This document shows, piece by piece, positions 5,553 through 63,130 of a stretch of DNA of 64,000 nucleotides. The position numbers were made by a program, and so were the translations under genes. The DNA comes from Flavobacteriales bacterium. Lineage in GTDB: Bacteria > Bacteroidota > Bacteroidia > Flavobacteriales_D > Sanyastnellaceae. Within the stretch, counting starts at the first letter, position 1, and each line of letters opens with the position of its first letter. Location: the NCBI GenBank assembly GCA_018402085.1, contig JAGYJM010000002.1, forward strand, positions 682,001 through 746,000. The letters are read 5' to 3'. The notes under the pieces were generated by a model. That model made no database searches and was not told the DNA's origin. It saw only the letters and a program-made list of their open reading frames with translations.

Positions 5553-6653
5553 TTATTCGTCAAGACTCTGGGTGAGCGACCGCACCACTTTAAATCCCGA
5601 GAGGAATTCGCGAGCAATGATGCGAATCAGTGTATAAGCCGGAATCGCCAGTATCATACCACCCACACCTGCCAGCGTGCCCGCCATGGTTATCACAAGA
5701 AAAATCTCCAATGGATGTGCCTTCACGCTATTGCCGAAGATATACGGTTGTACCAGAAAGTTATCAATCAATTGAGCGGTGATGAAGGTGCCGGCAATTT
5801 TATAGATCAGCGGCATAATTTCAGTGCTGAAATCAAGGTCGATATTGGCCGTAATTGTGATCAGCAAAGCAATGGCTGCGCCTATGTACGGACCGAGGTA
5901 AGGAATTAGGTTGATGAACCCTGCCAGAAATCCGATCAGAAAGGCATTCTCAATTCCGAAAATGCTGAGTCCGGCCGTGATCAGAATGGTCATGATCGAC
6001 ACCTGAATCAAGAGCCCGCCGAAGTATCGACTGAGCAGCTTTCTTGTGCGGTTGACCACGTTCTCCATTTGCTGCATCTGTTGATCAGGAGTGGCTTTCA
6101 GAATGGCCCTCGGCAGCATCTCGCGGTCTCGCAAGAAGAAGAAAGCAATGAAGAGTACAGAAAACAACGTGATCAGCACATTACCGATCAGTCCGAATAC
6201 ATTGTTGAACACCCCGCGGATGTCGCTGAAACTCACCACTTCCTTGACTTGCTGCACAATATACTCTTCATTGCTTCGCTCGTCACCACTGAGGTTATAG
6301 GGCTCAAGCGAGGAGAGTATATTTGAGAACTCTCTCTGCAGGTTCACCGTCACTTGATCTACATTGATTTTTGAAAGCGACTTTGCTTCCGATGCCACTA
6401 AGGGGGCAAACAAGGCAAAAAACAGGTAAATCAATACCAGAAACGCTAACAGGGTTACCACTGATGCCACACTTGAAGGCACGTGCCACGTACCAATCTT
6501 GATACTTTGCAAGAAATTCACAAGCGGGCCTCCAATAAATGAAACCACCGCCGCAATCAACACCCAGGCGACCACATTCTGAAAGTACCAGACCGCAAGA
6601 CACAGCAGGGCGAGTCCGACCATCCCAAGTACAATCCGCGCTCGGCGACTCAC
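5553..6653 (-). CDS. AI-2E family transporter
   Basis: GFINLIPYLGPYIGAAIALL, LIDNFLVQPYIFGNSVKAHPLEIFLVI; GTG start overlapping the upstream gene. Confidence 0.92.
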   Translation of the reverse strand: MSRRARIVLGMVGLALLCLAVWYFQNVVAWVLIAAVVSFIGGPLVNFLQSIKIGTWHVPSSVASVVTLLAFLVLIYLFFALFAPLVASEAKSLSKINVDQVTVNLQREFSNILSSLEPYNLSGDERSNEEYIVQQVKEVVSFSDIRGVFNNVFGLIGNVLITLFSVLFIAFFFLRDREMLPRAILKATPDQQMQQMENVVNRTRKLLSRYFGGLLIQVSIMTILITAGLSIFGIENAFLIGFLAGFINLIPYLGPYIGAAIALLITITANIDLDFSTEIMPLIYKIAGTFITAQLIDNFLVQPYIFGNSVKAHPLEIFLVITMAGTLAGVGGMILAIPAYTLIRIIAREFLSGFKVVRSLTQSLDE

Positions 6654-7153
6654 AGTAATTCTTTATGTTGTTTCGGGAAGTCGTGAAATACGATGCTTCC
6701 GCAACCGTTTCCGCAATGCTCCCAGGTCTCGAGCTCCATCTCAATGGTCACCACACCGTTGGTTGGCATATGCACTATTTCACCTGTGAGGTATTCGGTT
6801 AAGTAGCTGAACCCCGGGTTGTGACCAAACATCAATACACGAACGCAATCATTGTCGATGGCATTGATCACATCCATCAGATGTGAAACCGAAGCTTCAT
6901 AGATGCGCTCGTCTACGCGAATTTCGTTCTCTGGTTGACCAAAGACCTTCGCATATTCAAGTGCTGTATGATAAGCCCGTCTGGCAGGCGATGAAATGAT
7001 GCAGTCAGGCGCGGGGTGCTCCTCTTTCATTAACCTGGCCATGAATGGAGCATCGCGCACGCCCCGCTCATTGAGCGGACGTTCAATGTCAGGGAGACTG
7101 TCTTGTTGCCACGATGATTTTGCGTGGCGGATGAGGGTGAGTGATCGTTTCAT
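6650..7153 (-). CDS. sixA: SixA-like histidine phosphatase
   Basis: KRSLTLIRHAKSSW (RHG-type motif), VLMFGHNPGFSYL. Confidence 0.88.
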   Translation of the reverse strand: MKRSLTLIRHAKSSWQQDSLPDIERPLNERGVRDAPFMARLMKEEHPAPDCIISSPARRAYHTALEYAKVFGQPENEIRVDERIYEASVSHLMDVINAIDNDCVRVLMFGHNPGFSYLTEYLTGEIVHMPTNGVVTIEMELETWEHCGNGCGSIVFHDFPKQHKELL

Positions 7154-7274
7154 TTCACCGAAAATAGCAATTCAATGCGTGATACAGACAAGAATTTCGC
7201 ATCCGCCCATTTTTGGGCGAATCTAAAAATGAGATGCGGTATGAAAAACTTATTTTTGTAGGAAACCCTAAAAA

Positions 7275-7940
7275 ATGGCAAGCGAAACAGTTGAGAATTA
7301 CCTCAAGTGTATTTACACCCTGCAAAGCGACCAGGAAGATGGCGTGAGCACGAATGCCATCGCTGAGCGACTTGAAACACAGGCATCATCGGTGACAGAC
7401 ATGCTGAAGAAGTTGCGCAGCAAGAAGCTGGTAGAGTATAAGAAGTACAAAGGGGCTACATTGACAGAATCAGGGCGCCGCATAGCGGTTGATATTGTGC
7501 GGCGTCACCGCTTATGGGAGGTCTTTCTGGTTGAAAAACTTGATTACAAGTGGGATGAAGTGCATGAAATCGCCGAAGAACTCGAGCATGTGGGCCCGGA
7601 TGACTTCATTCAGCGACTTGACAACTTTCTCGGGGAGCCTGAATTTGATCCGCACGGCGATCCCATACCGGATTCGGAGGGTAACCTCAACGATACGCGA
7701 GATGCCGTGCCGGTGGCAAGTTTAGAGCCCGGGCAGCGCGGTAAGGTAGTAGGCGTGCGCGATTCTTCTGCTGATTTTCTCCAGTACCTTGATTCGGTGA
7801 AGCTCAACCTGGGGGCAGAGTTGCTGCTTAAAGAGCGCTTTTCATTTGACCAGTCGCTTTTGCTCGATGTAGATGATTCACCCCGCCAGATTTCGCAGCT
7901 CGTGGCGCGAAACCTCCTTGTGATTAAACAACACTCATGA
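7275..7940 (+). CDS. DtxR/MntR-family metal-dependent transcriptional regulator
   Basis: SETVENYLKCIYTLQ...VSTNAIAERLETQASSVTDMLKKL; DtxR dimerisation region and FeoA/SH3-like C-terminus. Confidence 0.93.
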   Translation: MASETVENYLKCIYTLQSDQEDGVSTNAIAERLETQASSVTDMLKKLRSKKLVEYKKYKGATLTESGRRIAVDIVRRHRLWEVFLVEKLDYKWDEVHEIAEELEHVGPDDFIQRLDNFLGEPEFDPHGDPIPDSEGNLNDTRDAVPVASLEPGQRGKVVGVRDSSADFLQYLDSVKLNLGAELLLKERFSFDQSLLLDVDDSPRQISQLVARNLLVIKQHS

Positions 7941-31345: not shown

Positions 31346-32823
31346 TGCAACTCGCTGTCCTCATCATATATGGTCTTTTATTGCTGTTCATCTTTGTATA
31401 CAGCTTCGTACAGTTGAGCCTGGCGTTGAACTACCGCAAGGCCCTTGCTAATCGCGCCGTGAAAACGGCGGATAAAGATGCGTTCGAGAAGAATACCGTT
31501 GACTGGCCCATCGTCACAGTACAATTACCGGTGTACAACGAGTTGTATGTCATTGAGCGCTTGATTGACGCGGTGGTTGCGCTCGATTATCCACAAAACA
31601 AGCTCGAGATTCAGGTACTCGACGACGGCAATGATGAATCCGTTGAAATTGCAGTGAAGCGCATTGCCCATTGGCAAGCGAAAGGATACGACATTCACCA
31701 CGTTCGTCGTGACGACCGCGTAGGGTACAAAGCAGGGGCGCTGGCATACGGACTCGAAATCGCGCGTGGTGAGTTCACAGCTATTTTCGATGCGGATTTT
31801 GTTCCGCGCAAAGACTTTTTAAAGCGCACCATTCCGCAACTGATGGCAGACGACAGGGTAGGAGTGGTACAAACCCGCTGGGAGCATCTGAACCAGGAGT
31901 ATTCAACCCTCACCCGTTTGCAAGCCTTCGGCCTCGATGCCCACTTCAGCGTAGAACAACTTGGCCGCAATACGGGCGGGCACTTCATCAACTTCAACGG
32001 CACGGCCGGGGTGTGGCGCAATGCCTGTATCCGCGATGCGGGCGGTTGGCAACATGATACGATCACTGAAGACCTTGACCTGAGCTACCGCGCCCAGTTG
32101 AAGGGATGGCGCTTTATTTACCTCGAAGAAGTAGGTTCACCTGCCGAGCTGCCGGCCGAGATGAACGCATTGAAGAACCAGCAGTTCCGCTGGACCAAAG
32201 GCGCGGCTGAGTGTGCGGTAAAAAACCTGCCATCGGTACTCCGCAAACGAGGTCTGGGCATGGGGACGAAAGTCCATGCGATCTTTCACCTCATGAACAG
32301 CTTCATCTTTCTGTGCGTTTTCGGAACGGCTTTACTTAGTTTGCCTGTCTTGTGGGTGAAGAGCACCACAGTGGCCTATGATATGCTGTTCAACCTTGCA
32401 AGTGTGTTCCTGGTGAGCTTTGTGATCCTTGCTTTCTTCTACTGGACCGCCTTTCGACGCACCGGTAAAGGTTTTCTGGTCTTTATGCGAGACTTTCCGC
32501 TTTTTCTCATGGTCTCCATGGGGATGTCATTGCATAACAGCATTGCTGTGATTGAGGGTTACATTGGTAAGAAGTCGCCTTTCATCCGCACTCCTAAATT
32601 TGCGATTGCTGAACACAAAGGTGGATGGGGTGATAAGAAGTACCGTGCGCTGAAGGCAAATCCATTGACGCTGGTTGAGGCCTTACTGGCAGTGTACTTT
32701 GCCGGCGGGATTGCCTTTGCCTTTTACGCCGGCGAGTTCGGACTCGTGCCGTTTCACATCATGCTGACACTGGGCTTCGCTTATGTCGCCTGGTATTCAT
32801 TCAAGCACACACGGGTAGGGTAA
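31345..32823 (+). CDS. Cellulose synthase-like glycosyltransferase family 2
   Basis: VTVQLPVYNELYVIERLIDAV, FDADFVP, TEDLDLSYRAQLKGW, QQFRWTKGA. Confidence 0.93.
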   Translation: MQLAVLIIYGLLLLFIFVYSFVQLSLALNYRKALANRAVKTADKDAFEKNTVDWPIVTVQLPVYNELYVIERLIDAVVALDYPQNKLEIQVLDDGNDESVEIAVKRIAHWQAKGYDIHHVRRDDRVGYKAGALAYGLEIARGEFTAIFDADFVPRKDFLKRTIPQLMADDRVGVVQTRWEHLNQEYSTLTRLQAFGLDAHFSVEQLGRNTGGHFINFNGTAGVWRNACIRDAGGWQHDTITEDLDLSYRAQLKGWRFIYLEEVGSPAELPAEMNALKNQQFRWTKGAAECAVKNLPSVLRKRGLGMGTKVHAIFHLMNSFIFLCVFGTALLSLPVLWVKSTTVAYDMLFNLASVFLVSFVILAFFYWTAFRRTGKGFLVFMRDFPLFLMVSMGMSLHNSIAVIEGYIGKKSPFIRTPKFAIAEHKGGWGDKKYRALKANPLTLVEALLAVYFAGGIAFAFYAGEFGLVPFHIMLTLGFAYVAWYSFKHTRVG

Positions 32824-34214
32824 TGCAGTGGCTGCCGGTCATCCGCCGCATCCTGTTCATCGCCTCGCTCTACGCCGGATACCTCTTCATGGGCTACGCG
32901 GTTGAGCGCAGTGATTTTGCTCTGGTGGTCATTGGTTTTGCCTTCTTGTCTGTCGGATTCGGGCTCTTGCTGAAGCACCGCGATGAATTCAGGTTTCGTG
33001 ACCTATTCTGGACTGCGCTTTTGTTTCGGGCTGCCTTTCTGCTTTCAGAACCGAGGTTGTCAGATGACCTCTACCGCTTTATGTGGGACGGAGCGTTGAC
33101 CCTCAACGGTGAGAACCCTTATTTGCACTTGCCATCTGGTTTGATGCAAGATGGTCGCGCGGTGGAGTACGGCATCGATGCTTTGTACGATGACCTCAAT
33201 TCGAAAAACTACTACACGGTGTATCCGCCGGTGAACCAGGCGATTTTTGCTGTGGCCGTCTTGATGGGAGGCAGCAAGGTGCTGGCAACGGTCTTCTGGT
33301 TTCATCTGATCTTGATCTTGTTCGAGGCCTTGTTGTTGGTCCTGATGAAGCGCCTCCTCGATTATTTTAAGCGTCCGTGGCAGTGGATGGCGCTCTATGC
33401 CTTTCACCCGCTGGTGATTGTGGAGCTGACCGGCAATCTGCACTTTGAAGGGGTGGTGGTGACCTTCATGGCCTTGGCTGTGTGGTGGGGAGTGCGTCCG
33501 CCTTTGCAGCACCCTGTGTTTCGTTGGTTGCCGTCGGCGGCGGCCTTTGCATTGGCCGTGAGTACGAAGCTGACACCATTGATGCTCGTTCCTTTGGCCG
33601 TTGTGGTATTGTTTCGTTTTTCTTCTCGCCGCGAAAGCGGCGGATGGCGACCCGTGCTGGCAAACGGAGCCTGGGGTACAGCAGTGCTCGCGCTGACTTT
33701 TGTGCCGTTCTGGAGCTCAGAACTCTGGGTGCACTGGCAGTCGAGCATCGGACTGTATTTCAGAACCTTCGAGTTCAATGCGAGTGTCTACTACTTGGTG
33801 CGTGAGATAGGACAGGCGATGCTGGGCTACAATCCGATCGCGACGGTGGGTCCGGCACTTTCGATAGCCTCTGCCACAGGGATTCTCGCGATAGCCGCAG
33901 CAGCGCTTCGCATCCGCCGTTTTAACGGCGAAAACATCGCTAATCTGCTGCTGTTTACTTTTGCTTTGTACTACCTGCTTGCCACCACGGTGCATCCCTG
34001 GTACCTGACCTATCTGGTTGCCCTACTACCCTTTGCCTCGTCGCGTTTCAGAGGCCTGCTCGGCTGGACACTCGTGGTGGTATTCAGCTACAGCCACTAC
34101 CACAGCGGTCTATTCGAAGAACGGTATGGCTGGATAATTGCGGAGTATTTGATCGCTCTACTGGTGTTCATCGCAACACTCGTAGAGTCGCGAGAATCAC
34201 CCGACAAAAACTAA
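32823..34214 (+). CDS. Polyprenol-phosphate mannosyltransferase-like integral membrane glycosyltransferase
   Basis: DDLYRFMWDGALTLNGENPYLHLP, YYTVYPPVNQAIFAVAV, multi-TM, terminal member of the glycosyltransferase operon. Confidence 0.8.
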   Translation: MQWLPVIRRILFIASLYAGYLFMGYAVERSDFALVVIGFAFLSVGFGLLLKHRDEFRFRDLFWTALLFRAAFLLSEPRLSDDLYRFMWDGALTLNGENPYLHLPSGLMQDGRAVEYGIDALYDDLNSKNYYTVYPPVNQAIFAVAVLMGGSKVLATVFWFHLILILFEALLLVLMKRLLDYFKRPWQWMALYAFHPLVIVELTGNLHFEGVVVTFMALAVWWGVRPPLQHPVFRWLPSAAAFALAVSTKLTPLMLVPLAVVVLFRFSSRRESGGWRPVLANGAWGTAVLALTFVPFWSSELWVHWQSSIGLYFRTFEFNASVYYLVREIGQAMLGYNPIATVGPALSIASATGILAIAAAALRIRRFNGENIANLLLFTFALYYLLATTVHPWYLTYLVALLPFASSRFRGLLGWTLVVVFSYSHYHSGLFEERYGWIIAEYLIALLVFIATLVESRESPDKN

Positions 34215-34215
34215 C

Positions 34216-34266
34216 TTTCCCAGTTTCCCAGTTTCCCAGTTTCCCAGTTTCCCAGTTTCCCACTTT
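34216..34266. repeat. 8-bp tandem repeat (tttcccag)n
   Basis: tttcccagtttcccagtttcccagtttcccagtttccc immediately after the stop of the preceding CDS. Confidence 0.95.
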
Positions 34267-34315
34267 CCCGAATCGTCCATAAGTCCATAAGTCGATAGGT
34301 CGATGAGTCGATGAG
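34264..34315. repeat. 52-bp direct repeat, left copy
   Basis: tttcccgaatcgtccataagtccataagtcgataggtcgatgagtcgatgag; identical copy at 35907-35958. Confidence 0.95.
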
Positions 34316-34481
34316 GCAATGAGTCGAGGACTTGGTAGCAAGCTCATCACGCGAAACGTGAATTCAGCAATTAATGGTTTCTTAACCGAGATTTGAGTCA
34401 TTATTTCTGTAAATGATGTCAACAGTTTTGGTACTTCCCGATCATCCTGCGTTCTTACGCAGCAAGAATAAAAGCTGAAAT

Positions 34482-34907
34482 ATGTTCGATATACTAGAAG
34501 ATTACGCTATTCAAGACCATTTTTTCGTGAATCCGGATTCCGATCTTTCTGCGGTCTGCAATGCACCAAGAAACGCCGTTGGAGTTTATCTTGTCTACTC
34601 ACTGCACCATGGAGAGGTCGAGTTGGTTTACATTGGCTCTTCAGGCAAAGTATTGCAAGATGGCTCTGTCAGATATCGGGTAGGAGGGCTTTACGACCGT
34701 ATAGTAAATGGCAAGCAATTTGGTGAAGCACGCCGTCGAAGCTGGAAGAAGCGTATGGTTACGGAGGAAATCGACGCACTGGATGTGTACTGGTATCATA
34801 CGATGGACAACGAGGTTCAGGATATACCAAGCTACGTAGAGAGTTACCTTTTGCAGGCACATTACTCGTTGTACAGAAGGTTGCCGCGCTGGAACAAAGA
34901 GGCATGA
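34482..34907 (+). CDS. GIY-YIG superfamily-like protein
   Basis: VGVYLVYSLHHGEVELVYIGSSG, GGLYDRIVNG, YVESYLLQAHYSLYRRLPRWNKE (GIY-YIG core, candidate Glu and Asn). Confidence 0.65.
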   Translation: MFDILEDYAIQDHFFVNPDSDLSAVCNAPRNAVGVYLVYSLHHGEVELVYIGSSGKVLQDGSVRYRVGGLYDRIVNGKQFGEARRRSWKKRMVTEEIDALDVYWYHTMDNEVQDIPSYVESYLLQAHYSLYRRLPRWNKEA

Positions 34908-35007
34908 GGGCGGTTTCGCAAATCGTCGATGCCTCAATGCGTCCATCGTTATCCGGTATCCTGTGTAAGCCTGTAAGCCAGTTCGTTGAAATTCGATGAG
35001 TCCATCC

Positions 35008-35958
35008 GTCAACGGACGCCTGGAAGGCGCCCCTATCTGCTGTTCCCACACATTCTATCGCGCCGCAATGATGCGGCGGCATCTAGCGCTTCCCGATAAA
35101 TCGCGACAAGTCTAGCGCTGAATAACACGTCTTGCTACCTACCTACCTCGCTTCCTCGCTTCCTCCCGGTTTCCCGAAAAGTCGATAGGTCCATAAGTCC
35201 GTAAGCCGATAGGTCGATACGTCAACGGACGCCTGGAAGGCGCCCCTATCTGCTGTTCCCACACATTCTATCGCGCCGCAATGATGCGGCGGCATCTAGC
35301 GCTTCCCGATAAATCGCGACAAGTCTAGCGCTGAATAACACGTCTTGCTACCTACCTACCTCGCTTCCTCGCTTCCTCCCGGTTTCCCGAAAAAGTCGAT
35401 AGGTCCATAAGTCCGTAAGCCGATAGGTCGATACGTCAACGGACGCCTGGAAGGCGCCCCTATCTGCTGTTCCCACACATTCTATCGCGCCGCAATGATG
35501 CGGCGGCATCTAGCGCTTCCCGATAAATCGCGACAAGTCTAGCGCTGAATAACACGTCTTGCTACCTACCTACCTACCTCGCTTACTCCCCGTATCCCGG
35601 TTTCCCAGTTTCCCTACCTCGCTATCTCCCTACCTCCCAGTTTCCCGAAAAAGTCGATAGGTCCATAAGTCCGTAAGTCGATAGGTCGATACGTCAACGG
35701 ACGCCTGGAAGGCGCCCCTATCTGCTGTTCCCACACATTCTATCGCGCCGCAATGATGCGGCGGCATCTAGCGCTTCCCGATAAATCGCGACAAGTCTAG
35801 CGCTGAATAACACGTCTTGCTACCTACCTACCTACCTACCTACCTCGCTTACTCCCCGTATCCCGGTTTCCCAGTTTCCCTACCTCGCTATCTCCCTACC
35901 TCCCAGTTTCCCGAATCGTCCATAAGTCCATAAGTCGATAGGTCGATGAGTCGATGAG
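35008..35958. repeat. Four tandem copies of a ~213-258 bp repeat
   Basis: Core gtcaacggacgcctggaaggcgcccctatctgctgttcccacacattctatcgcgccgcaatgatgcggcggcatctagcgcttcccgataaatcgcgacaagtctagcgctgaataacacgtcttgctacctac begins at 35008, 35221, 35435 and 35693. Confidence 0.97.
35907..35958. repeat. 52-bp direct repeat, right copy
   Basis: Identical to 34264-34315. Confidence 0.95.
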
Positions 35959-35971
35959 TCCATTGGTCTCC

Positions 35972-37975
35972 CTACCGTATCCCCCGAATAATGTAATCGT
36001 AGATCGGATTATTGGCCTCAGTGTTCGGCTGGGCGAAGGCTTCGGTGATCCATTGGGGTTTTTTCAGGATACCGCGCTCCATCATCTCCAGTATAGTGCC
36101 ATACCATTCAAGAGAGGTCTTGCCGATGAGCAGAGGAGTGAGGTCGTTGCCATCGTCCCAGAAGCGGAACAATTCGCGCAAGCCCCTGAGGTAGAGATGG
36201 TCTTTGGTAAACCCTCCGCCGCGGAAAATCCGGACCGTCAGGTAATAGGCTTCATCTACATCCATTTCCAATTCGTTGACCATATGTCGGTATACATGAA
36301 TGAAATCAGCCCCTTTGACCATCATATCGGTGGCAATGACGCGGGCACCGAGTTGCTTGAGTCGGTTCAGGGTGATATTGCCGCTGAGGTATTCAGCCAG
36401 CACGGCTAATCCTTCTTGTGTCATGGTGCTCACCGGAAGACCCAGGTTGAAAACCTTCAATGGCTGTTTATTGCTGTTCATGGTCGTGACCATGTGCACC
36501 CCGATCTCGTGATGAACCAGAAAGCGCAGTTCTTTCGGGCGAAAGGTCGCTCCCTTTTTAAGCAGCACTTTTTTCTCTGCGTTCACGACCATGGCCGAAG
36601 CAGCCAAGCTGCGTGTGATTTCGATTTTACCTTTGAAGCCATAGCGCTCAAAGCTCTCTTTAAAGAGACGTATAGCATCGTCAGTACCAAGCGTAGGCTC
36701 AGCGATGGTCTCTTCTACTTGAGGCAGGTGTAGCAAGAACCGGGCATTTCGAAGGTCTTGTTCGCCGGGTTCGCCAAAATAGCGCAGTGAATTGTACAGG
36801 AAGCGACTTGTGCCAAGCGAGCCGAGCATATCAATTTTGTCGCTGTAGGCGTTGATTACAGCTTCGTACAAACGCTGTATATGGATATCACTGATCTTCT
36901 CAACCTCCATGCGGTGCAGCTTGCGCTTGAGCTGAAAAGGGTCGAAACGAATGGGTTTGTACTCAAATTCCGGATTGATCGTACAGCGCGAAGCGAAAAA
37001 GCGCTTTTTTTCACCTTCAATATTGATGGGGTTGATCGCACTTAACAATTCAAAGCCCCTGAGCGTTTCGTAAAGTTGGCTGTCAACCTCAAGAATCGCC
37101 TCCTGCAAGTCTTTCGACAGCAAGCGGGCCTTCTTTTTGTGCTCCCAGTTGGTGTACTCTTTCGAGAAGGCGTGAGCGTGATTGAGCACGGCCTTCTTAA
37201 GCTTCATCTTAACCGCCCGGATCACCGAAGGGTAGGGCTCACCGGTTTCTTCGTTGCAATATACCTTGGCGATCTCTGTTGCGAGCACCAGTGTATTCTT
37301 GAAGTTTTCAGTGATGAAGGATAGGTTGAAACCACGCCCAAAGAATACATCATTGACCGCAACGGTGTTTGGGATGCCGTGATCCAATTCGATGCGCTTG
37401 AGTTCTTCGAGCCAGTCTTGAACGCCCTCTCCAAACACATCCATATTCACATTCTCAGCACCGATGTTCCACGTTGGTACTTCGCGCTCCCATCGACGCC
37501 AGTTGTAAGAGTGGAGGTCATAGACTACACAGGCATCGAAGAGTTCTTCGAGTTTCGCAATCAGGGCATGTGTCACCTTGTAGTAGAGCCGGTGTTTCTT
37601 CAGGCTGCGGTCTTTCTCCGCTTTGGTGAGTGGCTTTTTCCACACCTTCTTGCCCCAGGCTTCTTCGAAGATGCAGCTTGCGGGCGGACGATTCAGGTCA
37701 TACTCAAACCTGCTGTCAAGCCCGACCAGCTTAATAGGCATAGATGATATGAACGCCCCGGTGTACGGGTCTTCTTCATACCAGCGATCGAAGTCTGACA
37801 AGCGTGCTTTGAGTTTCAGCTCATCGCGAAAACGATGTCCGTCGTGAATCGCAGTGCATACGTAAGGTACATACTCATTTATAGAAATGCGGAAACCTGC
37901 ATCGCTGGCTTCCGCTTCAAATGTGACCCCCTGCTGTATTCGCCGGATGATCTCTTCGCATGTGAGTTTACGCAT
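35972..37975 (-). CDS. N-formylglutamate amidohydrolase-like domain fused to flavohemoglobin expression-modulating QEGLA-motif (DUF1704/MATCAP-like) metallopeptidase
   Basis: N-terminus IHDGHRFRDEL...GLDSRFEYDLNR...VVYDLHSYNWRR; C-terminal HHEIGVHMVTTMN...MTQEGLAVLAEYLSG. Confidence 0.85.
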   Translation of the reverse strand: MRKLTCEEIIRRIQQGVTFEAEASDAGFRISINEYVPYVCTAIHDGHRFRDELKLKARLSDFDRWYEEDPYTGAFISSMPIKLVGLDSRFEYDLNRPPASCIFEEAWGKKVWKKPLTKAEKDRSLKKHRLYYKVTHALIAKLEELFDACVVYDLHSYNWRRWEREVPTWNIGAENVNMDVFGEGVQDWLEELKRIELDHGIPNTVAVNDVFFGRGFNLSFITENFKNTLVLATEIAKVYCNEETGEPYPSVIRAVKMKLKKAVLNHAHAFSKEYTNWEHKKKARLLSKDLQEAILEVDSQLYETLRGFELLSAINPINIEGEKKRFFASRCTINPEFEYKPIRFDPFQLKRKLHRMEVEKISDIHIQRLYEAVINAYSDKIDMLGSLGTSRFLYNSLRYFGEPGEQDLRNARFLLHLPQVEETIAEPTLGTDDAIRLFKESFERYGFKGKIEITRSLAASAMVVNAEKKVLLKKGATFRPKELRFLVHHEIGVHMVTTMNSNKQPLKVFNLGLPVSTMTQEGLAVLAEYLSGNITLNRLKQLGARVIATDMMVKGADFIHVYRHMVNELEMDVDEAYYLTVRIFRGGGFTKDHLYLRGLRELFRFWDDGNDLTPLLIGKTSLEWYGTILEMMERGILKKPQWITEAFAQPNTEANNPIYDYIIRGIR

Positions 37976-39075: not shown

Positions 39076-39233
39076 CGAGAAGTCGAGACTTGAATACACA
39101 CTTCAGTGTGCGCCGTGAAGTCGAAATGCCCACTGATCAGGTTCCCCCTCAGAAGTAGTTTGAGTTGGAGTTGGAGAGTGACCAGATCCCTGAAGTACCC
39201 CAAGTCCTACCACCAACCACCAACCATTCCCCC

Positions 39234-39300
39234 GATCCCCGATCCCCGATCCCCGATCCCCGATCCCCGATCCCCGATCCCCGATCCCCGATCCCCGATC
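39234..39300. repeat. 7-bp tandem repeat (gatcccc)n, ~9 copies
   Basis: gatccccgatccccgatcccc..., abutting the stop codon of the minus-strand CDS at 39300. Confidence 0.97.
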
Positions 39301-52410: not shown

Positions 52411-55400
52411 CTATTCACAAGGAGCACCGAAACTGCCCAGGAACTGAAGCAGGTCAGAGCTATTTACCAGACCATCATCATTCAGGTCTTCCGGACAGTT
52501 GTCAATGTAGATACATTCGCCACTGTCAATCGTAGCACTAGCATCATAGTTATCGGCATCGGGGTATGTACATCCTACACAGCTAAAGTCACAGTCACCC
52601 TCATCATAAGTAGCGTCTGCATTGTAGTTGCACGCACCTGAGTTGGTACAACCATAAACCAGTGGCACCTCATTACAATCGCTTAATTCAGTATTGAGTG
52701 TGCGCGTATAAGAGAAGCCACCTCCGTTGTTACCGCCTGTCCAACTGTGCCATACAACATCAAAGTACAGGTTTGTTCCAACGATATGCATTGACCACTG
52801 GGTGTCATTATTGCAGTACAAGTTGGGGTTTGAATCTGCAGCTTCAATCCAGGTGGTATAATCACCTGGTTCATCTGTTGCACCAAGTTTCCAGACGGTA
52901 TTTGAAGGCCCGCCTACAGCGTTACCTGGCCATCCATCCTGATCAAATGCATTGAACAATCCTTGACTATTCGCACGCGCGATCCAGATGTTCTCTGTGA
53001 TTCGATCTTGGTTTTCAGGCAGGGTCCAGTCAGCGTTGTTTTCCTTCGTGAACGTCACGGAGACTTCGCCTTCGAAACAATCGAGAATGGTACACGATCC
53101 ATCGTCAATGGAGGCCATTGCATTGTAGTTGGACGCTACGGGATCTGTACATCCGACATAAATACAAGAGCCGTCGTCAACTGTTACGGCAGAGTTGTAG
53201 TTTACAGCATTACTGTCAGCGCAGCCCGGAATATCGACTGCGATATCGAAGATACAGCTACCATCATCATAATTGGCGTCTACGTTGAAGTTCGTTGCAT
53301 CTTCGTAGGTACAACCACCGATGATACAACTTCCATCATCGGTATTGGCCAATGGATTGTAGTTGTCAGCAGTCTGATCTGTACAACCACTGATAATGCA
53401 TGATCCGTCATCATTATTCGCTTCAGGATTATAATTATCAGCTATTGGATCCGTACAACCAGTGATGATACAAGAACCGTCGTCGTTGTTTGCGTCGGGA
53501 TTGTAGTTATCAGCCTGATCGTTTGTACAGCCGCTGATCACACAAGAACCATCGTCGTTGTTTGCTTCCGGATTATAGTTATCCGCCTGATCATTTGTAC
53601 ACCCGCTGATAATACAAGAGCCATCATCATCAGTTGCTTCCGGGTTGTAGTTATCTGCATTCTCATCCGTACAACCTGGTTCGCAAATTGGTGTTTCCAG
53701 CAGATAGACCACAACACGTCCGTTGCCCGTATTGGCTTGTGCCATTGCAGCAGGGCTGTTAGCAGTGTTGTAGCTACCACCGCCACCGCCGTTACCGCCG
53801 ATGCCGTAGCTACCGCCTCCACCGGAGTAGCCACCGCCACCACCGGCACCGTGACAGCCACCGCCACCACCACCGCCGTAGCCACCGGCGATTCCAGCTC
53901 CACAAGCAGAGGTTCCACCCTGTGCACCATTTACGAATGCCTGGCCTGCAGTCATCTGACCGTCTATTGCACAGAATGAGGCTTCACCATCTGTGAGGTA
54001 ACCGGCACCATTTCCGCCACAGGTGTTCGCATTGTTGGAAGCACCATTTCCGCCGGCGCCACCGATACCGTAGTTATCAGGGCTATTGGGGCTGTAGCCA
54101 TCATTGCCATTTTCAGTAACGCTAGCATGGATATTCCCGTTGTTCGGATCACCTGCAGAACCGCCACCACCACCGGCAGCCATTAGCAATGTTCCGCTTT
54201 GGTCTGTGACGAATGAGCCGCCGCCGCCACCGGCATAGCTGAACTGACCATCTCCATTTTCACCGGCTTGGCCTGGATAAATGAAGAATTGATCACCGGT
54301 CGTCACATCGAAGTTTCCGGCAATCATTGCGCCCAAACCTCCACCTTGACCATCAGCACTACCACCTTGGGCACCATAAACTTCAATGCGAATTTCAGCG
54401 ACTTCGGCCGGAACCACGAACTGTTGCACTGAGCCACTGAAATTGAAGACGAAGTTATTCGTAGATGCTGTTGGGTCATAACAGTTGCCACAGTCATCTA
54501 CTAAGAAGTTGCCTCCACAGTTGCCAGCGCAGTCAACGACATAGATACATGAACCATCATCGTTAGATGCTGCAGGGTTGTAGTTACAAGCTGCTTGATC
54601 CATACATCCGCTGTAGATACAGCTATCATCATCGATATTTGCCGCAGGGTCGTAATTATCTGCACTGACATCAGTACAACCTAAGTACTCACAAGAAGCA
54701 GGATCATCAATGTTGTATGATGGGTCATAATTGTCTGCTTCAGAATCCATACATCCAACCACAGCAGGAACTTCCTGACACCCGCTTTCTTCCACGAGGA
54801 ATGTACGAGTGTATGTAAATCCACCACCTTGGCCGTTGCTTGTCCATGCCTCGAAAACAAATTCGAAGTAGAGATCACTGTCAGTGATTCTCATGGTCAT
54901 GGTATGTGGAATGTCGAATGCATTATTAGGACCACCTATACCACTTTGGTAAACGGCATCTCTCCAGTTATCCCATGTATTAGGCGAGTCAAAGTCACCC
55001 CATTTCCATGTGGTATTCAGCGGAGAGAGGTTTTGGTTGTGGCTTTGCTCGAAGGCTACATTGTAGATACCTTGTTGGTTCTGACGTGTAATGATGCAGG
55101 TAGGCGTGATTTCATCCTGGTTAGCAGGGTCATTGAAGTCAGCGTAATCTGCTTTGGTGAATGTAACCACCGGTGCACCTTGGTACTCGTCACATTCGAG
55201 TACAGTACACGAACCGTCGTCATAATCGGCTTCAGGGTCGTAGTTGTATGCTTCAGGGAGGGTACACCCACCGGTACAAGCCGCTTGAGCGACCTCGAGG
55301 CCGTAAGTAATGATCACCAGACCGTCACCTGAGTTAGCTGCAGGCTGGTTTTCTTGATCTGAACCGGCGTTGAATGAACCACCGCCGCCGCCGGCGCCGT

Positions 55401-58400
55401 TGCAGTTGGTACCGCCGCCGCCGCCACCGGAGTAGCCGCCGCCGCCGCCACCACCCATAGGTGATGAACCACAGCCGTAGTTGAACTGGTTAGATCCGGC
55501 ACCACCGCCGAAACCACCGGTAGAGTCACCACCGAGACCGCCGTTGACAAATGCCTGTCCGCCGTTAGCATCCTGGAATGATGTACCATCGGTGAAGAAT
55601 CCACCTCCGCCACCGGCATTACCGATAGGTCCGCCGTTACCGTTGGTTGAGTATTCACCACCGTTACCATCTGTACCACCGGCACCACCGCCGTTGTCAT
55701 TCGCATATTGCCCTGCGTTACCTGCTTCAGTGATTGCACCGCCGATGCCGGAGTAACCGTTGTTAGACTGGTTGTGTCCGGTACCGCCACCACCACCGGC
55801 GACAACAAGAGGAGTGTTGTCAGCGAGCGCGACGAATGTACCACCGCCACCGCCGTTACCGACCTGGTTAGGAGCTGTTTCACCTTCTTGTCCTACGAGG
55901 ATGTTAAGTACATCACCCGGAGTCACATCTACGGTGCCGGCCATGATGGCTCCTCGACCACCATTGCCCCCGCCTTGAGCACCGCGTGCTTCAATGCGGA
56001 CAGCCGTAACGCCTTCCGGCACGGTCCATGTGTCGATTTGTCCGGAGTACTCGAAGGTTACCTGACCGGAAGCCATATTGGCATCAATACAGTCGCCACA
56101 TGAATCGATGTAAGAAGCACCACCACAAACGCCGGCACAGTCGAACTCGTAAGCACATGAACCATCATCGATTTCAGCAGTGTCATCGTAGTTACATGCT
56201 TCCTGATCGAGACATCCGAGGTTGTAGGCACATGAACCGTCATCTTCGTTCGCCTGCGGATCGTAGTTATCGGCCACAGGATCTGTACATCCCGGATAGA
56301 TACAAGAGCTGTCATCGAGCTCCGCCTCCATGTTGTAGTTCTGAGCCAGAGGATCCATACAACCTACCACAGCGAGGTATTCTTCGCATCCGCTTTCTTC
56401 CGGCAGGAAGGTACGTGTGTATTGGAAGCCCCCACCACTGGCGCAGCAGGTCCATTGATCGAATTGAACTTCGAAGTAGAGGTCCGAATCAATAACGTGC
56501 ATGGTCATGACAGAGTTGCTTCCCTGACTGAGGGCGCTATTGGGTCCACCGAATGGGCTTTGGTATACCGCATCTCTCCAGTTATCGTAAGGATAAGGAG
56601 AGTTGATATCGCCCCACTTCCACTCGGTATTGGCCGGAGAAGAGCTTTGGTTGTGGTTACCTTCAAGAGCAATGTTGAAGAGCCCTTGCGCATTCTGGCG
56701 CGTGATCACACAAGTAGGAGTGACCTGATCCTGGTTCTCCGGTTGGTTAAAGTCAGTATAATTGTCTTTCTGGAACTCTACCACGACATCACCGTCATAC
56801 TCCGGACAGTCAAGCAGTGTACAAGATCCGTCATCGTAATCTGCATCCGGGTTGTAGTTGTATGCTTCGGGGATCATACAGCCACCGATACAAGGAGTAA
56901 GGACTTCGCCAAGAGTGATAACAATGAGACCATCACCTTCACGAACACCACCTTCGTTATCCTGATCGGTTCCGATGTTGTAGGAACCACCGCCTCCACC
57001 ATAGGTAGAGAAGCTGCTCCAATCACCAGCAGCACCCCCACCGGAGTAACCGCCTCCACCACCTGGCGAACCGAGTTCGCCGGCACCACCGCCGCCGAAT
57101 CCACCGTAGTGGCTATTGCCGTAGCACGAAGTGTTTCCGGCGCCACCAGCACCTCCGTTTAGGTAAGAGCGTCCACCTTGAGGTGTGTTACAGTGGGCTT
57201 GCCCATCGGCACCATCAGTGAAGAATCCTCCACCTGCACCGCCGCTGTATGAGCCTGTGCGACTACCGCCGTTACCATCTGAGCCACCGTTTCCTGTGCC
57301 ATTACATTCTGCATTAGCACCTTCTTCAGTGATTTGACCGTTTGCGGCTTCAAGATCGCGAGCGCAGCTATTTCCATAGTTAATTGCAGGGCCACCGCCG
57401 CCTCCACCGGCAATGATGTATGGAGTGTCATCTGCAGCGCGAACAACAAATGATCCGCCACCGCCACCGTTTTCGTTGCCGTGTGGGTCATCGGTATCGC
57501 CTCCGGTTCCGCCCATTTGGCCAACCAGGATATCATATTGTTCACCGGGTGTTACGCTGAACGTACCACTCATGTATGCACCGAGCCCGCCGTCGAGGCT
57601 ATTGAAACCACCGCCGCCCTGAGCGCCGAATACTTCAATTCGAACGGATGTTACATCTTCAGGCACTGTCCATGTTTCGATACTACCTGAATACTCAAAT
57701 GTAACTACCTCATTCACTTGGTTCGGGTCTTCACAATCGCCACAAGGGTTAACAAATGCGGAGCCACCACAAACGCCAGCGCAGTCAAATTCATAAGCAC
57801 AGAGACCGTTGTCGTTGATCGCATCCGGATCGTAGTTACAAGCTGTATCGTCAGTACACCCACTATCGTAGAGGCAAGTTCCGTCTTCGAAGTTAGCCTC
57901 CGGGTTGTAGTTATCAGCGTTAGGGTCAGTACATCCTGCTACGCAGTCAGGAGCGTTGGCATAGGTTATGATTACTTGTCCGTTTCCTTCACGGGCACCG
58001 GCTACTGCATTGAGGAGTACTCCTTCATTGAAGCTACCTCCACCACCTCCGTTCCCGGAGCTGTTATTGCCGCCACCACCACCGGAGTAGCCGCCGCCGC
58101 CGCCGCCACCGTGCCAGCAGGCACCGCCACCGCCGTAGCCACCATCAACGCCTGAGTTTCCAGTACCATTGCAACCATTGGTGCATTGACCACCGAAGAA
58201 GGTGTCAAAGCTGCCACCACCTTCGAGGTTGATACCGTTGATGCATCCTGAAGTTGCTCCGGGGGAGTTCCAGCCTCCGCCTCCGGCACCGGCACAGCCA
58301 TCGCTTCCGCCGCCTCCGGCACCACCGATGCCACCGGCGTACCCACTGCTTGAGTTACCGCCATTTTGACCTGTTTGACCGGCGCCGCCGGCTGTGTTTT

Positions 58401-61400
58401 GGTGTGCACCACCGCCTCCACCGGCAACAAGGAGCGGAGAATTCTGGCCGTTCACCCAAATGAATGAGCCGCCACCGCCGCCGCCACCGTAGTTGGTGCC
58501 GTTGTCATTAGGTTTAGTATCGCCTTGACCACCAACAACAATGTTGAGAGTTTCACCGGGGGTTACCTGAACAGTCGCTTCAATCTGAGCACCACGTCCT
58601 CCGATAGCCGCATCACCCGGGCTATTACCGCCCTGAGCTCCCATGGCATTGATGGTTACTTCAGTCACACCATCCGGTACCACCCATGTTTGAAGTGAAC
58701 CAGTGTAATCGAAAGTAGCATCTGCGTTTGATTGAGCGAGGTCATAGCAGTTACCGCAGTCATCAAGGATGAACGGACCGCCGCAGATTCCTGCACAGTC
58801 AACAGTAAATTCACAGCTACCATTATCGCATGGCGCATTCGGATCATAGTTACAAGCTGCCTGATCGAGACATCCGCCAGCGATACAGGAACCATCATCG
58901 ACATTTGCTGTAGGATCGTAGTTACATGCGGTATTGTCCATACAACCAGCCACAGCAGTGACTTCCTGACACCCGCTTTCTTCAACGAGGAATGTACGAG
59001 TGTATGTAAATCCACCACCTTGGCCGTTGCTTGTCCATGCCTCGAAAACAAATTCGAAGTAGAGATCACTGTCAGTGATTCTCATGGTCATGGTATGTGG
59101 AATGTCGAATGCATTATTAGGACCACCTATACCACTTTGGTAAACGGCATCTCTCCAGTTATCCCATGTATTAGGCGAGTCAAAGTCACCCCATTTCCAT
59201 GTGGTATTCAGCGGAGAGAGGTTTTGGTTGTGGCTTTGCTCGAAGGCTACATTGTAGATACCTTGTTGGTTCTGACGTGTAATGATGCAGGTAGGCGTGA
59301 TTTCATCCTGGTTAGCAGGGTCATTGAAGTCAGCGTAATCTGCTTTGGTGAATGTAACCACCGGTGCACCTTGGTACTCGTCACATTCGAGTACAGTACA
59401 CGAACCGTCGTCATAATCGGCTTCAGGGTCGTAGTTGTATGCTTCAGGGAGGGTACACCCACCGGTACAAGCCGCTTGAGCGACCTCGAGGCCGTAAGTA
59501 ATGATCACCAGACCGTCACCTGAGTTAGCTGCAGGCTGGTTTTCTTGATCTGAACCGGCGTTGAATGAACCACCGCCGCCGCCGGCGCCGTTGCAGTTGG
59601 TACCGCCGCCGCCGCCACCGGAGTAGCCGCCGCCGCCGCCACCACCCATAGGTGATGAACCACAGCCGTAGTTGAACTGGTTAGATCCGGCACCACCGCC
59701 GAAACCACCGGTAGAGTCACCACCGAGACCGCCGTTGACAAATGCCTGTCCGCCGTTAGCATCCTGGAATGATGTACCATCGGTGAAGAATCCACCTCCG
59801 CCACCGGCATTACCGATAGGTCCGCCGTTACCGTTGGTTGAGTATTCACCACCGTTACCATCTGTACCACCGGCACCACCGCCGTTGTCATTCGCATATT
59901 GCCCTGCGTTACCTGCTTCAGTGATTGCACCGCCGATGCCGGAGTAACCGTTGTTAGACTGGTTGTGTCCGGTACCGCCACCACCACCGGCGACAACAAG
60001 AGGAGTGTTGTCAGCGAGCGCGACGAATGTACCACCGCCACCGCCGTTACCGACCTGGTTAGGAGCTGTTTCACCTTCTTGTCCTACGAGGATGTTAAGT
60101 ACATCACCCGGAGTCACATCTACGGTGCCGGCCATGATGGCTCCTCGACCACCATTGCCCCCGCCTTGAGCACCGCGTGCTTCAATGCGGACAGCCGTAA
60201 CGCCTTCCGGCACGGTCCATGTGTCGATTTGTCCGGAGTACTCGAAGGTTACCTGACCGGAAGCCATATTGGCATCAATACAGTCGCCACATGAATCGAT
60301 GTAAGAAGCACCACCACAAACGCCGGCACAGTCGAACTCGTAAGCACATGAACCATCATCGATTTCAGCAGTGTCATCGTAGTTACATGCTTCCTGATCG
60401 AGACATCCGAGGTTGTAGGCACATGAACCGTCATCTTCGTTCGCCTGCGGATCGTAGTTATCGGCCACAGGATCTGTACATCCCGGATAGATACAAGAGC
60501 TGTCATCGAGCTCCGCCTCCATGTTGTAGTTCTGAGCCAGAGGATCCATACAACCTACCACAGCGAGGTATTCGTCACAGCCGCTTTCTTCCGGCAAGAA
60601 GGTACGTGTGTATTCGAAACCACCGCCTTGACCGTTGCCAGTCCATTGATCGAATTGAACTTCAAAGTAGAGGTCCGAATCAATAACGTGCATGGTCATG
60701 ACAGAGTTGCTTCCCTGACTGAGGGCGCTATTGGGTCCACCGAATGGGCTTTGGTATACCGCATCTCTCCAGTTATCGTAAGGATAAGGAGAGTTGATAT
60801 CGCCCCACTTCCACTCGGTATTGGCCGGAGAAGAGCTTTGGTTGTGGTTACCTTCAAGAGCAATGTTGAAGAGCCCTTGCGCATTCTGGCGCGTGATCAC
60901 ACAAGTAGGAGTGACCTGATCCTGGTTCTCCGGTTGGTTAAAGTCAGCATAATTGTCTTTCTGGAACTCTACCACGACATCACCGTCATACTCCGGACAG
61001 TCAAGCAGTGTACAAGATCCGTCATCGTAATCTGCATCCGGGTTGTAGTTGTATGCTTCGGGGATCATACAGCCACCGATACAAGGAGTAAGGACTTCGC
61101 CAAGAGTGATAACAATGAGACCATCACCTTCACGAACACCACCTTCGTTATCCTGATCGGTTCCGATGTTGTAGGAACCACCGCCTCCACCATAGGTAGA
61201 GAAGCTGCTCCAATCACCAGCAGCACCCCCACCGGAGTAACCGCCTCCACCACCTGGCGAACCGGAGTTCTCCGGCACCACCGCCGCCGAATCCACCGTA
61301 GTGGCTATTGCCGTAGCACGAAGTGTTTCCGGCGCCACCAGCACCTCCGTTTAGGTAAGAGCGTCCACCTTGAGGTGTGTTACAGTGGGCTTGCCCATCG

Positions 61401-63130
61401 GCACCATCAGTGAAGAATCCTCCACCTGCACCGCCGCTGTATGAGCCTGTGCGACTACCGCCGTTTCCATCTGAGCCACCGTTTCCTGTGCCATTACATT
61501 CTGCATTAGCACCTTCTTCAGTGATTTGACCGTTTGCGGCTTCAATATCGCGAGCGCAGCTATTTCCATAGTTAATTGCAGGGCCACCGCCGCCTCCACC
61601 GGCAATGATGTATGGAGTGTCATCTGCAGCGCGAACAACAAATGATCCGCCACCGCCACCGTTTTCGTTGCCGTGTGGGTCATCGGTATCGCCTCCGGTT
61701 CCGCCCATTTGGCCAACCAGGATATCATATTGTTCACCGGGTGTTACGCTGAACGTACCACTCATGTATGCACCGAGCCCGCCGTCGAGGCTATTGAAAC
61801 CACCGCCGCCCTGAGCGCCGAATACTTCAATTCGAACGGATGTTACATCTTCAGGCACTGTCCATGTTTCGATACTACCTGAATACTCAAATGTAACTAC
61901 CTCATTCACTTGGTTCGGGTCTTCACAATCACCACAAGGGTTAATAAATGCCGGACCGCCACAAGTACCGCCGCAATCAAATTCGTAAGCACAAGAACCA
62001 TCGTCAATGATCGCGATAGGGTCATAATTACAAGCTAACTCATCAAGACACCCTAAGTCGAAAGAACAGCTTCCATCGTCATCTGTTGCTTCGTCGTTAT
62101 AGTTGTCAGCTGAAGGGTCAGTACAACCCAATACACATAGGGGAGTGTTATCAAAGCTGATGATTACAATACCGTTGCCACTTCCAACTCCTTCATTGCT
62201 TTCAACAAGAACACCGGCGTTAAAGCTTCCTCCGCCACCGCCGTTCCCGGAGCTGTTATTGCCGCCGCCACCACCGGAGTAGCCGCCGCCGCCGCCGCCG
62301 CCGTGCCAGCAGGCACCGCCACCACCGTAGCCACCATCAACGCCTGAGTTTCCTGTACCATTGCAACCATTGGTGCACTGACCACCGAAGAAAGTGTCAA
62401 AGCTGCCACCACCTTCGAGGTTGATACCGTTGATGCATCCTGAAGTAGCTCCAGGGGAGTTCCAGCCTCCGCCGCCTGCGCCGGCACAGCCGTCGCTTCC
62501 GCCGCCTCCGGCACCACCGATGCCACCGGCGTACCCACTGCTTGAGTTACCGCCGTTCTCACTTGTTAGTCCGGGTCCACCGGCCGTATTTTGGTGTGCA
62601 CCACCGCCTCCACCGGCAACAACGAGCGGAGAGTTCTGGCCGTTGACCCATATGAATGAGCCGCCACCGCCGCCGCCACCGTAGTTGGTGCCGTTGTCAT
62701 TTGGTTTAGTATCGCCTTGACCACCAACTACAATGTTGAGGGTTTCGCCGGGAGTTACCTCGACGGATGCAATCACCTGAGCTCCGAGGCCTCCGATAGC
62801 CGCATCACCCGGGCTGTTGCCGCCTTGAGCGCCGGTAGCATCAACTGTGATTTCAGTTACACCTTCCGGCACCTCCCAAGTTTGAAGGCTTCCTGTGAAA
62901 TCAAATATTGCTTCGCCATTTGTGATAGGAGAATAGCAATTGCCGCAGAGGTCAAGGATAAAATCACCTCCACAAACACCATTACAGTCTATTGTCCAAA
63001 CACATGAACCGTCATCAGTGATGGCTGCAGGATCGAAATTACAAGCTGATTGTGCTGTACATCCTGATTGAGCTGAGCCTTGAAAAGACATGAACAGCCC
63101 GATTAGAGCAAGTAGTAAAAAACGTAGCAT
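52411..63130 (-). CDS. Giant secreted multidomain protein, 3572 aa if the single-base frameshift near 61264 is corrected: signal peptide, seven ALK/LTK-like glycine-rich domains, ~30 DDGSC motifs, five WGD/YTRTF beta-domains, C-terminal dockerin-like tail
   Basis: ORFs 61214..63130 (638 aa, signal peptide MLRFLLLALIGLFMSFQGSAQ) and 52411..61344 (2977 aa) are one reading frame apart; comparison with the internal duplicate at ~57071 shows a 1-nt insertion in copy B; ends NCPEDLNDDGLVNSSDLLQFLGSFGAPCE. Confidence 0.8.
53110..53700 (-). repeat. 72-bp coding minisatellite (24-aa GCTNDQADNYNPEANNDDGSCIIS units)
   Basis: About eight consecutive GCTxxxAxNYNxxAxxDDGSC units in the C-terminal third of the giant protein. 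Confidence 0.9.
54760..58950 (-). repeat. Internal duplication copy A (period 4191 bp)
   Basis: Matches 58951-~63100 at constant offset 4191 (4192 past the indel); ~3 kb near-identical (54760-57735 vs 58951-61927), more diverged beyond. Confidence 0.92.
58951..63100 (-). repeat. Internal duplication copy B
   Basis: Counterpart of 54760-58950; identical shadow ORFs such as 55314..55883 and 59505..60074. Confidence 0.92.

What the first reader, a model, noticed from the sequence alone, without database searches (positions are those of the whole stretch)
34264..35958. 52-bp perfect direct repeats bracketing an orphan GIY-YIG-like gene plus a four-copy hairpin repeat array
The same 52 bp (tttcccgaatcgtccataagtccataagtcgataggtcgatgagtcgatgag) occurs at 34264-34315 and 35907-35958. 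Between them lie one ORF resembling a GIY-YIG nuclease and four ~213-bp repeats. A candidate endonuclease with its own repeats between direct repeats has the layout of an undescribed small mobile or self-propagating element, or of a repeat-expansion locus maintained by the nuclease. Mobility is inference only; the direct repeats could also arise from expansion of an 8-bp satellite.
Basis: partly seen in the sequence, partly recalled or inferred. Interest (0 to 1): 0.66.

Follow-up and report, generated by a model that had tools for sequence, protein, structure and literature searches.

The report
Species-specific satellite repeats beside nuclease gene
A 1.76-kb stretch of short tandem and hairpin repeats with one small nuclease-like gene has entered between two genes that touch each other in related bacteria, but the repeats are one of many copies of a family scattered through this genome and show no link to the nuclease, so this is most likely an ordinary repeat locus with a passenger gene rather than a new mobile element.

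Summary
The 52-bp perfect direct repeat (34264-34315, 35907-35958) occurs exactly twice in the genome. Between the copies lie one 141-aa GIY-YIG-like gene and four repeat units whose first 142 bp are identical. The 1757 bp between the two flanking genes are an insertion: in six relatives that keep both genes, including two of the same genus, their stop codons overlap by 8-25 bp and there is neither repeat nor nuclease. Best reading: a lineage-specific compound satellite/hairpin repeat that grew by tandem duplication and carries a horizontally acquired orphan nuclease, plausibly a defence gene; the 52-bp repeats are the satellite's outer modules. By-catch: the nuclease is an unnamed, patchy Bacteroidota family. 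In two distant genomes it sits behind a type I R-M specificity region whose 3' end is duplicated right after it, so a minority reading as a gene inserting with long target duplication survives.

The parts
32823..34214 (+). Left flanking gene, 463-aa hydrophobic glycosyltransferase-like protein; its end overlaps the next gene in relatives
   Evidence: no Pfam family; orthologues 33-51% identical beside the right-hand gene in G001, G002, G003, G007, G017, G011
34215..35971 (.). 1757-bp lineage-specific insertion at a convergent gene junction
   Evidence: stop codons of the two flanking genes overlap by 8-25 bp in six relatives
34216..34269 (+). 8-bp satellite (TTTCCCAG)x6.8
   Evidence: TRF
34264..34315 (+). 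Left copy of the 52-bp direct repeat (junction of the TTTCCC satellite with the GTCSATRR satellite)
34482..34907 (+). Orphan GIY-YIG-like gene, 141 aa; GVY-x13-YIG, C-terminal WN; unnamed family
   Evidence: no Pfam/NCBIfam/PADLOC family
34928..35006 (+). Degenerate satellite between the gene and the array
   Evidence: direct reading; 72% similarity of 34928-35185 to the reference repeat copy
35007..35219 (+). Repeat unit 1 (213 bp); hairpin 1 35014-35032, hairpin 2 about 35060-35079
35220..35433 (+). Repeat unit 2 (214 bp)
35434..35691 (+). Repeat unit 3 (258 bp, longer satellite tail)
35692..35949 (+). Repeat unit 4 (258 bp), whose tail runs into the right 52-bp copy
35907..35958 (+). Right copy of the 52-bp direct repeat
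35972..37975 (-). Right flanking gene, 667-aa MATCAP-type (DUF1704) carboxypeptidase-like protein
   Evidence: Pfam PF08014 E 5.9e-100; orthologues in 7 of 10 relatives searched

Best explanation
The locus is one copy of a compound repeat family found, among the genomes searched, only in this species: an 8-bp GTCSATRR satellite, a pyrimidine and TTTCCC satellite, and REP-like hairpins. It occupies a junction between two convergent genes that is empty in relatives. It grew by tandem duplication of a 213-258-bp unit, most likely through replication slippage and unequal recombination between satellite tracts, which explains the identical cores and the variable tails. The 52-bp perfect repeats are the outermost satellite modules, either duplicated or homogenised with each other. 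The GIY-YIG-like gene is a horizontally acquired orphan of a patchy Bacteroidota family, plausibly an anti-invader nuclease, sitting in the satellite tract as cargo; it neither makes nor maintains the repeats. Shown: the insertion, its lineage specificity, the dispersal of the repeats, the lack of linkage, the patchiness of the gene. Inferred: slippage/recombination as mechanism, the order of events, and the nuclease and defence functions.
For: Empty junctions in six relatives. Repeat unit with 100 matches genome-wide and none in 60 relatives. Satellite 340 hits here and 0 in 39 relatives; hairpin 1 281 hits here, 0 in two congeners and at most 2 elsewhere. A regular 400-kb sample gives about ten satellite places, so roughly 70-95 in the genome. 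Of 38 mapped loci one abuts this gene. Other satellite tracts also flank unrelated genes with exact repeats, e.g. a 113-bp and a 38-bp pair. Array cores are identical while tails vary in satellite copy number. The gene is present in 7 of 299 genomes of the order and 13 of 395 of the class, mostly without flanking repeats. GC of the gene is 46.7% against 50.6% for the window.
Against: The 52-bp pair is the longest exact pair in the window outside the array and a large gene duplication, apart from the heptamer satellite at 39230, and it brackets the gene neatly. Two homologues elsewhere are also flanked by long direct repeats that start right behind their stop codon. No strain-level comparison was available, so arrival of gene and repeats as one block cannot be excluded.
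Confidence: 0.72

Rival explanations
1. The GIY-YIG-like gene is a small mobile gene that inserted here with a long target duplication, as described for restriction-modification genes; the 52 bp are that duplication and the hairpin array amplified later.
For: In Empedobacter stercoris (L075) the last ~72 bp of hsdS are repeated (66/72) from the base after the nuclease stop, and in a Neomarinimicrobiota MAG (L069) the last ~110 bp of an M-S gene are repeated (93/109) within a few bases of the stop; both downstream copies still read in frame to a stop. Scores that high were seen in about 0.1% of random windows. Long target duplication of R-M genes: PMC1643837, PMC3031569 citing Nobusato et al. 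2000.
Against: Only 2 clear cases of 43 loci, both at type I specificity-gene ends, where hsdS recombination is common (own knowledge); two further cases are probable cassette arrays. Relatives' empty sites lack the 52 bp. Here the repeats are satellite, and the right copy is ~1 kb from the gene.
Confidence: 0.17
2. Nuclease-driven repeat locus: the protein cuts at the hairpins or satellite and drives their copying, so gene and repeats form one self-propagating system.
For: Physical neighbourhood; a distant paralogue (28%) lies 2.9 kb from another large array on contig C1.
Against: One orthologue against dozens of repeat loci; five other GIY-YIG genes of this genome lie 2.7-120 kb from the nearest mapped satellite; homologues in other genomes have no such repeats; the C1 paralogue stands with a tyrosine integrase and other cargo.
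Confidence: 0.04
3. The hairpin module is a REP/REPIN-type element moved by a RAYT transposase.
For: Short GC-rich hairpins with fixed outer stem and compensated inner stem; one Y1 transposase gene in the genome.
Against: No hp1/hp2 hairpin beside that gene; two congeners each have a Y1 gene but none of the repeats; no GTAG tag; CGTC lies inside the stem, whereas the described tag is unpaired (PMC3733652).
Confidence: 0.05

Closest known systems
TAACTGA heptamer direct repeats of Beggiatoaceae, Cyanobacteria and some Bacteroidetes (PMC4679880)
   Same: Short-unit tandem repeats, largely intergenic, many sets per genome, patchy across lineages, no known mechanism of spread
   Different: 7-bp fixed unit often just before start codons; here an 8-bp degenerate unit combined with hairpins, at all kinds of gene junction
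REP elements: GTAG and CGTC superfamilies (PMC3733652)
   Same: Short GC-rich hairpins, intergenic, clustered; CGTC type known in Bacteroidetes without a dedicated transposase
   Different: No unpaired GTAG/CGTC tag; embedded in satellite; units repeated head to tail
GIY-YIG endonucleases (PF01541), including defence nucleases such as PD-T4-3
   Same: GVY...YIG hairpin, beta-beta-alpha-alpha-beta-alpha order, C-terminal Asn
   Different: Not recovered by PF01541 (own-genome search finds five other genes, not this one), no confident fold match
Restriction-modification genes inserted with long target duplication (Nobusato et al. 2000, cited in PMC1643837 and PMC3031569)
   Same: Gene bracketed by a long direct repeat at an otherwise intact junction
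   Different: The empty target in relatives does not contain the 52 bp; here the repeat is satellite

Membership tests
GIY-YIG nuclease | GIY and YIG motifs about 10-13 residues apart in a beta hairpin | tested here: met
   GVY34-36 ... YIG50-52; conserved in alignment A2; strands 34-42 and 45-54 in the model
GIY-YIG nuclease | Significant match to PF01541 or to a solved GIY-YIG structure | tested here: inconclusive
   One of 27 members at E 0.019; window gene not found by PF01541 in own genome; no profile match to own-genome GIY-YIG domains; no PDB fold hit for it; the paralogue's best hit is PD-T4-3, E 0.27, prob 0.30
GIY-YIG nuclease | DNA cleavage | not testable with these tools
   needs purified protein
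Mobile element bounded by target duplication | Empty site with one copy of the flanking repeat | tested here: not met
   six empty sites without any copy; stops overlap by 8-25 bp. Relatives are other species, so this is not a strain-level test
Mobile element bounded by target duplication | Second copy of the whole element elsewhere | tested here: not met
   52-bp sequence only here; gene single copy apart from a 28% paralogue; none in viral contigs, phages or plasmids
REP/REPIN with RAYT | RAYT gene flanked by the hairpins | tested here: not met
   single Y1 gene at C2:1309048; no such hairpin in the 3.3 kb around it
CGTC REP | Unpaired CGTC tag at one end of the stem | tested here: not met
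   CGTC is part of the stem GGACGCC/GGCGTCC (definition)
Integron-type cassette | attC-like site bounding the gene | tested here: not met
   No attC-like inverted repeat beside the window gene by reading; the repeat finder lists no inverted pair
Known RNA family | Rfam match | tested here: not met
   no hit above chance

The most novel reading that the evidence does not exclude
A family of tiny GIY-YIG-like nucleases spreads through Bacteroidota and neighbours as a self-inserting gene that lands behind the stop codon of a host gene and duplicates the gene end or junction, often in type I R-M loci; the window locus is one landing, in satellite DNA.
Probability: 0.15. Interest if true: 0.6.

Novelty: new member of a known kind. 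Interest (0 to 1): 0.33.

Why it matters
It shows how quickly an intergenic satellite can invade one bacterial species: hundreds of copies, with none found in two species of the same genus. That makes the open question of how such repeats spread testable by comparing strains. The by-catch, an unnamed nuclease family that recurs in type I restriction loci next to duplicated specificity-gene ends, gives a concrete candidate for an accessory defence nuclease or a mobile gene.

Tried and rejected
RNA families: nothing. Phage, plasmid or viral origin of gene or satellite: no homologue of the gene, no satellite in viral contigs; one Pseudoalteromonas plasmid record has a pure (CGATAAGT)20 satellite in unrelated surroundings. 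RAYT-driven spread: rejected. Structured RNA unit: folding energy of the unit is no better than shuffles, z -0.4 to -0.5 as RNA and -1.6 as DNA, although single hairpins are stable. Convergent-junction preference of the satellite: 10 of 31 against 49 of 286 background pairs, suggestive only. Fold search of the 141-aa model gave no confident match in PDB or viral structures. The neighbours of homologues were scanned against defence and Pfam libraries mostly in bulk, with ten read one by one. The name of the organism was not determined.

Full report
WHAT IS THERE. The window is G000:C2:682001-746000 of a 3.78-Mb genome in two contigs. The 52-bp repeat is exact and extends no further. It occurs only twice in the genome within three mismatches and never in shuffled windows. 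Between the copies lie a 141-aa ORF at 34482-34907 and an array of four head-to-tail units starting at 35007. The first 142 bp are identical in all four units; the differences lie in the satellite tail (number of CTAC and A, and a 44-bp extension in units 3 and 4). Each unit holds hairpin GGACGCCTGGAAGGCGCCC, hairpin GCGCCGCAATGATGCGGCGG, an AGCGCT-bounded third hairpin, a CTACCT/TTTCCC pyrimidine satellite and a GTCSATRR satellite. The unit junctions are diverged versions of the 52-bp module.

IT IS AN INSERTION. Orthologues of both flanking genes were found side by side in six relatives: G001 and G002 of the same genus, and G003, G007, G017 and G011 of the same family. There the stop codons of the convergent genes overlap by 8-25 bp; here they are 1757 bp apart. 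None has the nuclease, the satellite or a 52-bp copy at the junction. The relatives are separate species (right-hand protein 56-76% identical), so the order of events within the lineage is not resolved.

THE REPEATS ARE GENOME-WIDE AND SPECIES-SPECIFIC. A single unit finds 100 places in this genome and nothing in 60 relatives. The satellite pattern has 340 hits here and 0 in 39 relatives. Hairpin 1 has 126 and 155 hits on the two strands here, 0 in both congeners and 0-2 elsewhere; its control pattern gave 2 in this genome. Because the hairpin is nearly palindromic, some of these hits count one hairpin on both strands. A regular sample of twenty 20-kb stretches gives about ten satellite places in 400 kb, i.e. 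roughly 70-95 in the genome. Of 38 mapped loci, nearly all are intergenic, and one abuts the GIY-YIG-like gene. Other tracts bracket other genes with exact repeats (113 bp in L109, 38 bp in L037), so a gene between identical satellite copies is a general property of this genome. The hairpins keep their pairing through compensated changes (GGACGCC/GGCGTCC, GGACGGC/GCCGTCC, GGACAGC/GCTGTCC, GGACGCA/TGCGTCC), which suggests a structural constraint or copying of whole palindromes. The unit as a whole folds no better than shuffles.

THE PROTEIN. It has no Pfam, NCBIfam or PADLOC family. An alignment of 27 homologues shows a GVY...YIG pair and a C-terminal Pro-x-Trp-Asn. The AlphaFold2 model is confident (pLDDT 93.5) with strand-strand-helix-helix-strand-helix order, as in GIY-YIG domains (own knowledge). 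No fold hit is significant; for the C1 paralogue the top PDB hit, weak at E 0.27, is the restriction endonuclease PD-T4-3, which I take from memory to be a GIY-YIG phage-defence nuclease. Profile comparison with GIY-YIG domains of this genome fails. I call it GIY-YIG-like, not a proven member. Homologues are patchy: 7 of 299 genomes of the order, 13 of 395 of the class, 29 loci in GTDB contigs mostly from Bacteroidota, none in phage, plasmid or viral collections. Neighbours include type I R-M, MmeI-type and GmrSD genes. In 36 of 42 loci the upstream gene is co-directional.

BY-CATCH ON MOBILITY. In Empedobacter stercoris (L075) and a Neomarinimicrobiota MAG (L069) the 3' end of the upstream type I specificity region is repeated within a few bases behind the nuclease stop, in frame to its own stop (66/72 and 93/109 identical). 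In G512 a 175-bp non-coding repeat (166/175) brackets the gene, and in Flavobacterium silvisoli (L065) it lies in an array of similar intergenic repeats; both look like cassette arrays. The other loci show nothing clearly above background. This keeps alive a reading in which the gene inserts with long target duplication, a pattern reported for R-M genes (PMC1643837, PMC3031569). It does not explain the satellite here.

MECHANISM. Most likely satellite tracts arose or arrived at the convergent junction, gained hairpin units, and expanded by slippage and unequal recombination; the orphan nuclease was acquired by horizontal transfer. Whether the nuclease came first, later, or with the satellite cannot be told. 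A link between nuclease and repeats is refuted as a general rule by the census; as a local accident it cannot be excluded.

VERDICT. Observation confirmed; interpretation partly supported (insertion yes, self-propagating element no). Interest is moderate because of the species-specific repeat invasion and the unnamed nuclease family.

Noticed in passing
L034:3111-9120 (G000 C1:123110-129120): A distant paralogue of the nuclease (L034:4646-5116), a tyrosine integrase (6471-7604) and a 1.2-kb hairpin array stand together; an attC-like inverted repeat (GGCTTTGCGTAGTTGCGG...CCGCAATTACGCAAAACC) lies at about 4500-4640, suggesting a cassette region.
   Followed up: partly
L075:3775-5490; L069:4719-5534: The 3' end of a type I R-M specificity region is duplicated directly behind a GIY-YIG-like gene.
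   Followed up: partly
window 54794-62700: Two near-identical ~4-kb direct copies (longest exact stretch 1589 bp, offset about 4190 bp) inside and around a 2977-aa ORF.
   Followed up: no
window 39230-39300: Perfect (CCCCGAT)10 heptamer satellite between genes; a second intergenic satellite type of this genome.
   Followed up: no
G000 C2:99905-110187, C2:2283217-2283838, C2:2495819-2497616, C2:1056317-1056636: Long arrays with 60-bp period of the same GGACGCC hairpin (GGACGCCAGGATGGCGTCC, GGACGCCTGGGAGGCGTCC) without the 8-bp satellite inside the unit.
   Followed up: partly
G000 C1:28-791, C1:294572-296381, C2:2141-10470, C2:3467485-3478363: Both ends of both contigs are rich in the satellite, mostly in the same orientation; probably assembly breaks in a repeat-dense region.
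   Followed up: partly
L126:1399-1558 (Pseudoalteromonas piscicida NZ_CP074588.1): Perfect (CGATAAGT)20 satellite, one of 13 matching places on that record, with the same 8-bp motif in an unrelated gammaproteobacterium.
   Followed up: partly
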